35,057 nt of DNA from Actinomycetes bacterium (GTDB lineage: Bacteria; Actinomycetota; Thermoleophilia; Gaiellales; Gaiellaceae): assembly GCA_023251945.1 (NCBI GenBank), contig JAHEXT010000005.1, forward strand, positions 1 to 35,057. Direction: 5' to 3'. A model generated the notes under the pieces. That model made no database searches, was not told the origin of the DNA, and saw nothing but the letters and a program-made list of their open reading frames with translations. Numbering within the stretch: position 1 is the stretch's first letter; the number at the start of each line of letters is the position of its first letter. The position numbers and the translations under genes were made by a program. Shown here piece after piece: positions 12,256 through 14,917 of the stretch.

Positions 12256-12263
12256 GGGTGGCG

Positions 12264-12269
12264 ACGCTA
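12264..12269 (-). promoter_or_regulatory. -10 hexamer TAGCGT of hutF
   Basis: TANNNT box 8 nt before GTG 12255; it decides the start of this shortened HutF. Confidence 0.5.
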
Positions 12270-12278
12270 GCAGGCCCG

Positions 12279-12299
12279 AGAGCTCCTTCAGGAGGCTCT
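12279..12299. promoter_or_regulatory. Imperfect dyad in the hutF-pgsA divergent promoter region
   Basis: AGAGCTCCT (12279-12287), 2-nt spacer, AGGAGGCTCT (12290-12299): a palindrome with one bulged base. It sits immediately upstream of the pgsA -10 box and about 10 bp upstream of the hutF -10 box, a position suited to an operator for both genes. Confidence 0.35.
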
Positions 12300-12304
12300 A
12301 GGGT
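12299..12304 (+). promoter_or_regulatory. -10 hexamer TAGGGT of pgsA
   Basis: TANNNT box 7 nt before GTG 12312; no Shine-Dalgarno sequence in the interval. Confidence 0.5.
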
Positions 12305-12311
12305 TTCCGGC

Positions 12312-12860
12312 GTGACCTGGGACGAGGTTCGCCCACGGATCCCGAACGCGCTCACGATCGCGCGCTTCGCTGCGATTCCGGTCTTCGCCTGGCTGTTCCT
12401 CGAGGCGGGCGACGGCCCGGCGTGGGGGGCAGGCGTGTTCTTCGCGGGCGCCGCCGTCACGGATCAGCTCGACGGGTACCTCGCACGCCGTTGGCATGTG
12501 CAGTCGAGGTTCGGGAAAGTCGCCGACCCCCTGGCCGACCGGCTGATGATCGGCGTCGCCGTCGTCCTTCTCTGGACCGAGGGTCGGATCCCGCTGGTCG
12601 CGATGCTCATCGTCCTCTCGAGAGACCTGGTGCTCGTCCTCGGCTACAAAGTCGTCGTGCCGCGGGGCTACGACTTCGAGGTCACCTTTCTCGGCAAGGC
12701 CGCGACCTGGGTGCTCTATGCCTCGCTCTGCTTCCTCATCGTGACCGCAAAGGGCACGGACTGGCCGCTCGTCCTGTTCTGGATCGGAGTCGCGCTTGCC
12801 GTCGCCGCCGGGGTGCAGTACGTGCTCAGGGTCCGCCGCGAGCTCGCCTCGCCGCGCTGA
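12312..12860 (+). CDS. pgsA: CDP-alcohol phosphatidyltransferase, PgsA-like
   Basis: 182 residues with several transmembrane helices and the complete CDP-alcohol phosphotransferase signature D51-x2-D54-G55-x2-A58-R59-x8-G68-x3-D72-x3-D76. PNALTIARF at the N-terminus is typical of phosphatidylglycerophosphate synthase, which joins CDP-diacylglycerol and glycerol-3-phosphate at the membrane. Phosphatidylinositol-phosphate synthase is a possible alternative in Actinomycetota. GTG 12312 is chosen for position just before PNALT and for the TAGGGT box. Confidence 0.88.
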   Translation: MTWDEVRPRIPNALTIARFAAIPVFAWLFLEAGDGPAWGAGVFFAGAAVTDQLDGYLARRWHVQSRFGKVADPLADRLMIGVAVVLLWTEGRIPLVAMLIVLSRDLVLVLGYKVVVPRGYDFEVTFLGKAATWVLYASLCFLIVTAKGTDWPLVLFWIGVALAVAAGVQYVLRVRRELASPR

Positions 12861-12901
12861 CAGCAGGGGGGTGGGGATCGACCGCGAATAGAGGGAAAGT
12901 C

Positions 12902-12916
12902 TCAACCTGAGGTTGA
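12902..12916. promoter_or_regulatory. 15-bp perfect palindrome, candidate operator of the rsiG-like/FHA/MerR/apt operon
   Basis: TCAACCTGAGGTTGA: 6-bp arms around a central TGA, overlapping the -35 box TTGACC at 12913. A MerR-family gene is the third gene of the operon, so autoregulation is plausible, but the binding protein is not known. Confidence 0.5.
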
Positions 12917-12942
12917 CCCCTGGGAGCGCCTGCTGCTTTACT
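12913..12942 (+). promoter_or_regulatory. Promoter of the rsiG-like/FHA/MerR/apt operon
   Basis: -35 TTGACC (12913-12918), 18-nt spacer, -10 TTTACT (12937-12942). A leader of about 20 nt follows, with a GAAAGG ribosome-binding site at 12958-12963. Confidence 0.5.
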
Positions 12943-12970
12943 CAGGTGACCCACGACGAAAGGCCGCGAC

Positions 12971-13228
12971 TTGGAACCGCTTCCCGATCTCTCCACGCTG
13001 ACCGACGACGACCTCCGCGTGACGATCCGCGAGCTCGAGAAAGAGGAGGACGAGATCTCCTTCCGTCGCCGCGTGCTGCATGGGCGCATCGACATCCTCC
13101 GCGCGGAGCTCGTTGCGCGCCTGCGCGAGCAGGTGAGCGCGGGCGAAGCGAAGCTCGCGGACGTCGAGCGCCTGAGCGAGATCCTGACCGGGAAGGCCAC
13201 ATCGGCGGCCGACCGCGACGACACGTGA
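12971..13228 (+). CDS. RsiG-like helical protein with a c-di-GMP-binding-type motif
   Basis: 85 residues, highly charged and predicted all-helical: a coiled-coil hairpin. The motif reported for the anti-sigma factor RsiG, E-x3-S-x2-R-x3-Q-x3-D, is matched as E26-x3-S30-x2-R33-x3-H37-x3-D41 with His for Gln. It is followed by ILRAELVARL. Only one motif copy is present, as in homodimeric RsiG forms known from deep Actinomycetota, rather than the two-motif Streptomyces type. RsiG sequesters the sigma factor WhiG when bound to c-di-GMP; no WhiG is in this window. The TTG start is chosen because GAAAGG lies 7 nt upstream. Its stop overlaps the next gene's GTG (GTGA). Confidence 0.7.
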   Translation: MEPLPDLSTLTDDDLRVTIRELEKEEDEISFRRRVLHGRIDILRAELVARLREQVSAGEAKLADVERLSEILTGKATSAADRDDT

Positions 13229-13689
13229 CGCACGTTTACTGTCCCGAGTGCGGCTTCCGAAGCCCGGCGACCGCCAACTACTGCCCGCGTTGCGGCGCTC
13301 TCCTCGCCACGGAGACCGGATCCGAGACGACCATGAGCTTCGACGTCGACGCGGCAGGTGAGGAGGCGGACGCCGCGGAGGGGGCAGTCGGCATCAAGGG
13401 GCCTGCGCTCGTCGTGCGCTCGGGGGGAGGCATGGCGGGCCAGTCGTTCCGGCCGGCCGACGGGCGGACGCTCATCGGGCGCTCGCCGGAGTGCGACGTC
13501 TTCCTCGACGACGTCACCGTTTCCCGCCAGCACGCCGAGCTCGTGCGCGAGGGCGACACGTTCACGATCCGCGATCTCGGCAGCCTCAACGGCACCTACG
13601 TCAACCGCCGGCGAATCGAGTCGGCGGTCCTCGAGGACGACGACGAGATGCAGATCGGGAAGTACCGGCTGACCTTCCGGCAGCGATGA
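13225..13689 (+). CDS. FHA-domain protein with N-terminal zinc ribbon, GarA/OdhI-like
   Basis: 154 residues. A Cys4 zinc ribbon (C6, C9, C20, C23) leads, then E34-T-T-M-S-F39, which resembles the ETTxxF phosphorylation site of GarA/OdhI. The FHA domain (~60-152) has GRS (85-87), SRQH (100-103) and NG (122-123). In mycobacteria and corynebacteria the phosphorylated N-terminal threonine folds back onto the FHA domain and switches control of 2-oxoglutarate/glutamate metabolism. The order FHA then MerR matches garA-ftsR. The zinc ribbon is not part of the classical GarA. GTG start overlaps the upstream stop; its own stop overlaps the next ATG (ATGA). Confidence 0.82.
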   Translation: MTHVYCPECGFRSPATANYCPRCGALLATETGSETTMSFDVDAAGEEADAAEGAVGIKGPALVVRSGGGMAGQSFRPADGRTLIGRSPECDVFLDDVTVSRQHAELVREGDTFTIRDLGSLNGTYVNRRRIESAVLEDDDEMQIGKYRLTFRQR

Positions 13690-14402
13690 GCACGGTCGCG
13701 GCCACCAGACGCGGGAAGGGCGGCGCGGAGCCGAGGCTCCGGACGATCGGGTCCGTGTGCGAGGAGCTTCGCGAGGCGTTCCCTGACATCTCCGTCTCGA
13801 AGATCCGCTATCTGGAGGACCAGGGGCTGATCACGCCGCGCCGGACGCGTGGCGGGTACCGGCTCTTCTCGCCCGACGACATCGAGCGGCTGACGACGAT
13901 CCTCCGGCTCCAGCGCGACGAGTTCCTGCCTCTCCGAGTGATTCGCCAGGAGCTCGACGGGCCCGGGGCGAGCGCCGACCGTACCCGGCGGAGAGTCGTC
14001 GGGCTGACCGGGACGGAGGATGAGATCCACGGCGCCGAGCTGTGCGAACGTGCGTCCGTCGCCCCCGACTTCGTCCGAGAGCTCGAGGAGTTCGGCGTCG
14101 TCATCTCGCGCGTCGAGAGCGGTGAGCGTCTCTACCGCGAGAGCGAGGCGGATGTCGCTGCGGCGTGTGCGCGCCTCGCGAGGTTCGGGATCGACGCACG
14201 TCACCTCCGTACGTTCCTCACGGCCGGAGGCCGGCAGGCGGCGCTCGTCGAGCAGCTCGTAGCTCCCGGCCTGCGGTCGCGGAACCCCGAGCGCCGGAAG
14301 GGGGCCGTCGAGGATCTCGAAGTCCTCGCTCGCGTCGCCGAGGAACTGTCGCACCTGCTCTTCCTCCGCGACCTGCGCGCCGTCGTGGAGCGGGCGTCAT
14401 GA
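13686..14402 (+). CDS. ftsR: MerR-family transcriptional regulator, FtsR-like
   Basis: 238 residues. An N-terminal winged-helix MerR domain (~19-90: IGSVCEELREAFPDISVSKIRYLEDQGL, RTRGGYRLFSPDDIERL) is followed by a long helical region and a second HTH-like segment (SVAPDFVRELEEFGVV). This layout is that of the FtsR/Rv1828 group, which activates ftsZ in corynebacteria and sits next to garA. It may bind the dyad at 12902-12916. Overlaps apt by ATGA. Confidence 0.8.
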   Translation: MSTVAATRRGKGGAEPRLRTIGSVCEELREAFPDISVSKIRYLEDQGLITPRRTRGGYRLFSPDDIERLTTILRLQRDEFLPLRVIRQELDGPGASADRTRRRVVGLTGTEDEIHGAELCERASVAPDFVRELEEFGVVISRVESGERLYRESEADVAAACARLARFGIDARHLRTFLTAGGRQAALVEQLVAPGLRSRNPERRKGAVEDLEVLARVAEELSHLLFLRDLRAVVERAS

Positions 14403-14917
14403 CCCTCGACCTGCGAGCACGCGTCCGCGACGTCCCCGACTTCCCGAAGGAGGGGATCGTCTTCAAGGACGTCATGCCGCTGATCGCCGATCCGGACTAC
14501 TTCTCGGAGACGATCCGCCGCCTCGCCGAGTGGGCGAGACCGCGAGAACCCGACCTCATCCTCGGTGCCGAGGCCCGGGGTTTCATCTTCGGAGGCGCAC
14601 TGGCGTACGCGCTCGGCGCGGGCTTCATCGCGGCGCGGAAGCCCGGGAAGCTCCCGCGGGAGACGATCGAGGCGACGTTCGAGCTCGAATACGGGACGGA
14701 CCGTCTCCAGGTGCATCGGGACGCGGTGCAGCCGGGCGCGCGGGTGATCGTCCTCGACGACGTGCTCGCGACCGGGGGAACGGCGAAGGCGAAGCTCGAG
14801 CTCGTCGAACAGCTCGGCGGGGTCGTCGCCGGCGTCGTGTTCGTGATCGAGCTGACCTTCTTGCACGGGCGCGACCGCCTCGACGGATACGACGTTCACT
14901 CCCTCATTCAGTACTGA
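14399..14917 (+). CDS. apt: Adenine phosphoribosyltransferase
   Basis: 172 residues, usual Apt length. Converts adenine and PRPP to AMP. Visible motifs: RDVPDFPKEGIVFKD at the N-terminus, GAEARGFIFGGALA, RKPGKLP and the PRPP-binding loop VIVLDDVLATGGTA. Last gene of the four-gene coupled operon; a short dyad overlaps its stop codon. Confidence 0.96.
   Translation: MTLDLRARVRDVPDFPKEGIVFKDVMPLIADPDYFSETIRRLAEWARPREPDLILGAEARGFIFGGALAYALGAGFIAARKPGKLPRETIEATFELEYGTDRLQVHRDAVQPGARVIVLDDVLATGGTAKAKLELVEQLGGVVAGVVFVIELTFLHGRDRLDGYDVHSLIQY

What the first reader, a model, noticed from the sequence alone, without database searches (positions are those of the whole stretch)
12902..12942. 15-bp palindrome over the -35 box of the FHA/MerR operon
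TCAACCTGAGGTTGA is a perfect 6-3-6 dyad that includes the TTGA of the -35 element, with an 18-nt spacer to TTTACT. Its position suggests control of promoter access by a dimeric regulator; the FtsR-like protein of the same operon is the obvious candidate.
Basis: partly seen in the sequence, partly recalled or inferred. Interest (0 to 1): 0.5.

Follow-up and report, generated by a model that had tools for sequence, protein, structure and literature searches.

The report
FtsR operator at FtsR's own operon
The short palindrome is very probably the landing site of FtsR, a regulator of the cell-division gene ftsZ, in front of FtsR's own operon; like sites sit before ftsZ, so the regulator appears to steer both cell division and its own production, together with a gene for a c-di-GMP-dependent anti-sigma factor.

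Summary
The dyad is real: TCAACCTGAGGTTGA at 12902-12916, in fact 7-1-7, overlapping TTGACC, 18 nt before TTTACT. As a dyad it is ordinary (31 of 6-3-6 in the window, 24.7 expected). What marks it is conservation: its half-sites, and usually its distance to the -10, are kept across Thermoleophilia, even where the upstream gene differs or the first gene rsiG is missing. It matches the published FtsR site of Corynebacterium glutamicum, and the operon encodes FtsR. A matrix trained only on Gaiellaceae operon sites found the box before this operon in 70 of 75 named loci (30 column-permuted controls: mean 4, at most 11), and before ftsZ, including ftsZ of this genome. In the genus the only genome-wide hits were these two promoters. 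Corrections: the first gene is rsiG, a c-di-GMP-dependent anti-sigma factor; the half-sites, not the perfect symmetry, are conserved. Most likely mechanism: negative autoregulation by -35 occlusion, alongside FtsR control of ftsZ. The sign is inferred; no binding was measured; some lineages lack the box.

The parts
12896..12921 (+). FtsR box (26-column motif AAAGTCTCAACCTGAGGTTGACCCCT), proposed operator
   Evidence: conserved in orthologous promoters; like motif before ftsZ; matches published FtsR motif (PMC6683498)
12913..12918 (+). -35-like element TTGACC, inside the right half of the box
   Evidence: sequence; position kept in relatives
12937..12942 (+). -10-like element TTTACT, 18 nt after the -35
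   Evidence: sequence; in 46 of 64 named loci with a box scoring over 15, the best -10-like hexamer lies 24-29 nt from the box centre when 10-50 nt are searched
12958..12963 (+). ribosome-binding-like GAAAGG before rsiG
   Evidence: sequence; GAAAGG seen at this place in many of the relatives printed
12971..13228 (+). rsiG: single-motif c-di-GMP-dependent anti-sigma factor, first gene of the operon (TTG start)
   Evidence: PF22802 71.5 bits, cut-off 27; E(X)3S(X)2R(X)3H(X)3D motif read from the translation
13225..13689 (+). zinc-ribbon + FHA protein, OdhI/GarA-like
   Evidence: PF00498 79.5 bits; NCBIfam OdhI 116.7 bits, below its cut-off of 200
13686..14402 (+). ftsR: MerR-type regulator, proposed to bind the box
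   Evidence: NF050798 TF_FtsR_Actino 203.1 bits, cut-off 150; helix-turn-helix region conserved
14399..14917 (+). apt, adenine phosphoribosyltransferase, start overlapping the end of ftsR
   Evidence: TIGR01090 206.4 bits, cut-off 185.85
12258..12860 (+). upstream gene: CDP-alcohol phosphatidyltransferase (pgsA-like), not part of the proposed circuit
   Evidence: PF01066 116.8 bits; a pgsA match lies here in 11 of 30 loci

Best explanation
The palindrome is the operator of FtsR at the promoter of its own operon rsiG-fha(garA-like)-ftsR-apt. An FtsR dimer reads the two half-sites CTCAA and TTGAc/g, centred about 39-40 bp before the start of transcription, so that its right half covers the -35 hexamer TTGACC. 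The same protein binds a like box about 65 bp upstream of the ftsZ start, the class of position at which C. glutamicum FtsR activates ftsZ. The most likely effect at its own operon is negative autoregulation: FtsR competes with RNA polymerase for the -35, holding FtsR, the FHA protein and the anti-sigma factor RsiG at a set level coupled to ftsZ expression. Shown: presence, conservation, position, match to the published motif, paired sites at ftsZ. Inferred: binding by this FtsR, the start sites, and the sign of regulation (repression about 0.6, activation about 0.3).
For: The box is kept while the upstream gene changes (pgsA match in 11 of 30 loci; a different long reading frame in L217) and while rsiG is absent (ten of eleven g32 loci show it right before fha, the eleventh is cut by the contig end). 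Matrix from Gaiellaceae operon sites alone: best window of the locus in 70 of 75 named loci, 48 of 53 with FtsR identity under 55%; 30 column-permuted matrices gave mean 4.0 and at most 11 of 75, the reversed matrix 5 of 75. The same sites' matrix puts the best window of the locus upstream of ftsZ in 31 of 41 ftsZ loci. Genome-wide in the genus the motif model gives 16 hits at E up to 5 in 11 genomes, nine at this operon and seven at ftsZ (the window's and own ftsZ sites were in the training set, and only the 150 best first-look candidates per genome were scored). In family f4 the box is missing before ftsZ in 5 of 5 loci and before rsiG in the 3 read, so both go together. Published C. glutamicum sites: AACCCTAAAGTAAAGGTTGAGGGTA at ftsZ and a like one at cop1 (PMC6683498). 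FtsR helix-turn-helix region conserved in the 15 aligned proteins. Many promoters have a good -10 (TATACT 12, TATAAT 7 of the 46 at 24-29 nt) with TTGACC, so they should need no helper, which favours repression.
Against: No binding or expression data. C. glutamicum FtsR ChAP-Seq lists nine peaks, none at odhI-ftsR. Family f32 has no top site within 150 bp of fha in 11 of 11 loci (one weak site at -164), nine further chosen phylum loci have it in 2, and 20 others in about five. One locus of the own family (L104, G014) has neither rsiG nor a box before fha. In g32 the -35 is degenerate (TGTACC and the like) while the left half-site is perfect, which would rather suit activation. In eight of the 64 loci the best -10 is 15-19 nt from the box centre, another geometry. 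L276, L279 and one Streptomyces (L287) fail the rank test.
Confidence: 0.77

Rival explanations
1. FtsR binds the box but acts as a class-II-type activator of its own operon (positive autoregulation), contacting RNA polymerase next to the -35.
For: FtsR activates ftsZ in C. glutamicum (PMC6683498). In the ten g32 loci the -35 is poor while the left half-site AACCCTCAAC and the spacing to TATGCT are kept. A mostly fixed centre-to--10 distance (46 of 64 at 24-29 nt) fits a contact as well as occlusion.
Against: In many loci the promoter has TTGACC and a good -10 and should not need an activator. The half-site coincides with the -35 instead of lying just upstream.
Confidence: 0.28
2. The box is bound by a different dimeric regulator (another MerR-type protein) that happens to read a similar half-site.
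For: The genomes carry other MerR-like proteins (weak second matches); half-sites of this kind occur in other MerR operators (recalled, not tested).
Against: In the genus the motif model hits only the ftsR operon and ftsZ, and the motif matches the FtsR site known from ChAP-Seq. It is missing at both places in family f4, whose FtsR is divergent or undetected.
Confidence: 0.08
3. No regulator: the conserved sequence is only an extended promoter, and the palindrome is chance.
For: Dyads of this size are common in the window (31 against 24.7 expected); the right half is a -35.
Against: The left half-site, outside any promoter element, is about as conserved as the right (profile), and a like two-sided motif recurs at ftsZ about 30 bp upstream of a separate TTGACA -35.
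Confidence: 0.05
4. Classic MerR spacer operator: FtsR binds between -35 and -10 and untwists the spacer.
For: MerR family; the published M. tuberculosis ftsZ site is placed between -10 and -35. Eight of 64 loci have the -10 closer to the box.
Against: At this promoter the spacer is 18 nt, not 19-20, and the box lies over the -35.
Confidence: 0.03

Closest known systems
FtsR operator at ftsZ of Corynebacterium glutamicum (PMC6683498)
   Same: Same core CTnAA-N6/7-GGTTGAG within an imperfect 25-bp inverted repeat; ftsR in an odhI/garA-ftsR cluster; ftsZ box centred at -73 there and near -65 here (counted by eye)
   Different: Here the box also sits at FtsR's own operon and over the -35; C. glutamicum ChAP-Seq lists no peak there; the operon here begins with rsiG and has apt after ftsR where C. 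glutamicum has the nuclease and second MerR genes
Rv1828 site at ftsZ of Mycobacterium tuberculosis (as described in PMC6683498)
   Same: Orthologous regulator, related half-site GGTTGAG at ftsZ
   Different: Site lies between -10 and -35; not examined here in that genome by name
Single-motif RsiG-WhiG-c-di-GMP switch of Rubrobacter and Conexibacter (PMC8325347)
   Same: First gene of this operon is a single-motif RsiG with the histidine variant that binds c-di-GMP in Conexibacter woesei (passages read)
   Different: That paper's main text has no occurrence of MerR, FHA or synteny, so it does not treat the link to ftsR or FtsR control of rsiG

Membership tests
FtsR operators | inverted repeat with half-sites CTnAA and TTnAG around 6-7 bp | tested here: met
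   window 12901-12917 CTCAACCTGAGGTTGAC against published AACCCTAAAGTAAAGGTTGAGGGTA; the outer base of the right half is C, not G
FtsR operators | a like site at the ftsZ promoter of the same genome | tested here: met
   G000:C14:15139-15163, E 9.4e-4 (site in the training set); found beforehand by a matrix trained without ftsZ sites
FtsR operators | FtsR orthologue encoded | tested here: met
   NF050798 203.1 bits, cut-off 150
FtsR operators | bound by FtsR in vitro or in vivo | not testable with these tools
   needs EMSA or ChIP
Classic MerR spacer promoters | operator between -35 and -10 with a 19-20 bp spacer | tested here: not met
   spacer 18 nt, box over the -35
Single-motif RsiG | RsiG domain | tested here: met
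   PF22802 71.5 bits, cut-off 27
Single-motif RsiG | one E(X)3S(X)2R(X)3[QH](X)3D motif | tested here: met
   EDEISFRRRVLHGRID read by eye in the translation; H variant described in PMC8325347
Single-motif RsiG | WhiG partner in the genome | tested here: inconclusive
   none over cut-off in this 63% complete genome; 16 of 21 genomes searched have one

The most novel reading that the evidence does not exclude
In early-branching Actinobacteria FtsR runs a two-promoter circuit: it drives ftsZ and autoregulates an operon that also makes the c-di-GMP-dependent anti-sigma factor RsiG and a GarA-like FHA switch, so that cell division, second-messenger signalling through WhiG and 2-oxoglutarate metabolism are set by one regulator; this autoregulated form is ancestral and was lost in lineages such as Corynebacterium where FtsR was first studied.
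Probability: 0.4. Interest if true: 0.68.

Novelty: new member of a known kind. Interest (0 to 1): 0.5.

Why it matters
FtsR is a known transcriptional activator of ftsZ in Actinobacteria whose signal is unknown (PMC6683498, section 14). A conserved operator at its own operon gives a ready reporter for that signal. It also places rsiG, a gene for a c-di-GMP-dependent anti-sigma factor, under the same control as ftsZ. Autoregulation of FtsR was not found in print in the searches, which cover an open-licence library only and of which I read three papers in part.

Tried and rejected
Symmetry as evidence: rejected, dyads of this size are at chance frequency. Exact palindrome as the conserved thing: rejected, two of the eight other genus members with the locus have CTCAAGCTGAGGTTGA. 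Loose pattern CTCAANNNNNGGTTGA with one mismatch in the own genome: nine places against eleven for the control, no signal beyond the operon site. The second exact CTCAANNNNAGGTTGA place in the own genome (C72:19808) scores only 11 on the matrix and its neighbours were not looked at. A claim that the box before the operon is phylum-wide was dropped: it is general in the class and in family f27, not seen in f32, patchy elsewhere. Classic MerR spacer mechanism rejected for this promoter. A first count of -10 positions searched only 24-39 nt and was biased; it was redone over 10-50 nt. A WhiG-type promoter here was not tested. No structure prediction was run.

Full report
What is there. The sequence TCAACCTGAGGTTGA is at 12902-12916. 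It is a perfect 7-1-7 dyad. Its right arm carries TTGACC (12913-12918), followed after 18 nt by TTTACT (12937-12942). It lies in the 110-bp gap between a pgsA-like gene (12258-12860) and an operon whose genes overlap by a few bases: rsiG (12971-13228), a zinc-ribbon FHA protein like OdhI/GarA (13225-13689), ftsR (13686-14402) and apt (14399-14917), identified with Pfam and NCBIfam. The genome is incomplete (1.28 Mb, 63%). Its genus includes Gaiellaceae bacterium KatS3mg012: locus L213 lies on a contig of 2,622,036 bases, the length and place of the G007 contig.

Chance. The dyad as such is unremarkable: 31 dyads of 6-3-6 and 8 of 7-1-7 in the window against 24.7 and 8.0 in 10 Markov resamplings.

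Conservation. In 30 FtsR loci from the genus and family, rsiG was recognised by tblastn in 28, the other two having the box before fha; the promoters share CTCAA, four variable bases, AGGTTGACCC and, in most, a TTTACT-like element about 18 nt on. CTCAANNNNAGGTTGA occurs in 31 of 61 genomes at 35 places, 25 of them beside ftsR by comparison; the pattern read backwards hit one genome. Of 25 further loci, two are cut by contig ends (L107, L115). In families f2 and f3 the box reads like AACCCTCAACTAGAGCTTGAGGAA and, directly before fha in ten loci of genus g32 that lack rsiG there, AACCCTCAACCnnCGCTGTACCCTT. Without a clear box are L104 (own family, no rsiG) and the three f4 loci L121, L124 and L126, the last with a partial left half. 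So the box follows the fha-ftsR unit rather than the gene upstream or rsiG.

Test on named genomes. Of 80 named loci five were too near a contig end. Of the other 75, the 170 bp before the first operon gene held the best site of the locus in 72 (this matrix had seen some of the same genomes) and in 70 with a matrix made only from Gaiellaceae operon sites (which also include some of the same genomes), 48 of 53 where FtsR identity was under 55%. Thirty column-permuted matrices gave a mean of 4.0 and at most 11 of 75; the reversed matrix 5. Seventy unnamed loci: in 20 of 20 (19 of the class, one of the family) the top site was upstream of the first gene, two with scores of only about 6; in 10 of 10 of family f27 (one score -0.7); in family f32 in 0 of 11 within 150 bp (L164 has a weak one at -164); in 2 of 9 other loci; in about 5 of 20 others fetched. 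Named Streptomyces loci carry the f27 sequence (TCAACCTCAAGTGCGGGTGGAGGGTT).

What binds it. PMC6683498 (sections 6, 11, 14 and found passages read) gives the FtsR site of C. glutamicum as AACCCTAAAGTAAAGGTTGAGGGTA, found by ChAP-Seq and bound by purified FtsR, and a similar one for M. tuberculosis. One relative here has AAACCCTAAAGCCAAGGTTGAAGGAT at its rsiG promoter (L103), close to the C. glutamicum site. The operon's own MerR gene is an FtsR by NCBIfam, and its DNA-binding region is strongly conserved in the 15 proteins aligned.

ftsZ. A matrix made only from operon sites put its best window upstream of ftsZ in 31 of 41 ftsZ loci (30 best matches and 11 fetched); some of these scores are low (down to -0.5), and in several the best site lies in the leader near the start codon. 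The 10 others are the 5 loci of family f4 and 5 loci with long open frames (478 aa and more) that look like a second ftsZ paralogue, for which the window tested may be coding (L087 is the least certain of these). In this genome and in G007 the ftsZ promoter reads TTGACA-N16/17 and a -10-like hexamer, with the box centred about 30 bp upstream of the -35 by eye, near -65; the C. glutamicum centre is -73. A sequence-only model of 27 sites (16 Gaiellaceae operon sites, one f2 operon site, 10 ftsZ sites) searched over the 11 genomes of the genus gave 16 hits at E up to 5: nine at the operon and seven at ftsZ. The window's site and its own ftsZ site were among the training rows, and only the 150 best first-look candidates per genome were scored. 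Of 31 family genomes each had a hit at E up to 0.5, with a tail of weak hits not examined.

How it works. Searching 10-50 nt downstream, the best -10-like hexamer lies 24-29 nt from the box centre in 46 of 64 named loci with a box scoring over 15, and 15-19 nt in eight (a first, narrower count was). That puts the centre of this box near -39 from the start, its right half being the -35. Many of these promoters have a good -10 (TATACT 12, TATGCT 9, TTTACT 8, TATAAT 7 of the 46) with TTGACC, so they should fire unaided; a dimer over the -35 would block them. I therefore favour negative autoregulation. Against this, g32 has a poor -35 with a perfect left half, and some loci have the -10 about one helical turn closer. 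In C. glutamicum FtsR is an activator at ftsZ and a likely repressor at cop1, so either sign is possible. The published ChAP-Seq lists no peak at the C. glutamicum operon, which limits the generality.

Link to c-di-GMP. RsiG of this operon has E(X)3S(X)2R(X)3H(X)3D; the histidine form from Conexibacter woesei binds c-di-GMP (PMC8325347, passages read). WhiG-type sigma factors over cut-off occur in 16 of 21 genomes; the five without are three incomplete genomes of the genus, this one included, and the two g32 genomes, whose operon lacks rsiG. FtsR control of rsiG transcription follows from operon structure and is not shown.

Novelty. The operator type is known. Its place at FtsR's own operon, its conservation there and the near-minimal two-promoter set are, as far as searches of an open-licence library show, not described. 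M. tuberculosis Rv1828 names an iModulon that holds cell-division genes (PMC9044949, passage read).

Noticed in passing
   Followed up: yes
L083, L085, L074, L075, L077 upstream of ftsZ: Several ftsZ leaders carry an FtsR-like box between promoter and start codon, besides or instead of the upstream one.
   Followed up: partly
L238, L240, L242, L244, L246, L248: In some Thermoleophilia loci the -10 lies about 15-19 nt from the box centre instead of about 27, roughly one helical turn closer; a second promoter geometry.
   Followed up: partly
G041, G044 (genus g32): The two g32 genomes checked lack both rsiG in the operon and a WhiG sigma factor over cut-off, yet keep the box before fha-ftsR.
   Followed up: partly
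L154, L155, L156, L157, L158: In family f32 and one other a box-like site lies downstream of ftsR; in L158 it precedes a second MerR-like reading frame of the cluster.
   Followed up: partly
G039, G042, G045, G048, G051 (family f4): A family with divergent or undetected FtsR lacks the box before ftsZ, and before rsiG in the three genomes where the operon could be read.
   Followed up: partly
L104 (G014:C47): One genome of the own family has neither rsiG nor a clear box before fha-ftsR, though an exact CTCAANNNNAGGTTGA lies elsewhere in it (C133).
   Followed up: no
L252, L268, L281, L285: Four public records titled Bifidobacterium breve MAG carry Thermoleophilia-type ftsR loci and are probably mislabelled.
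   Followed up: no
L127 (G016:C310), L128 (G034:C121), L129 (G014:C133): Perfect or near-perfect CTCAA-N6-TTGAG palindromes at places away from ftsR; their neighbouring genes were not identified.
   Followed up: no
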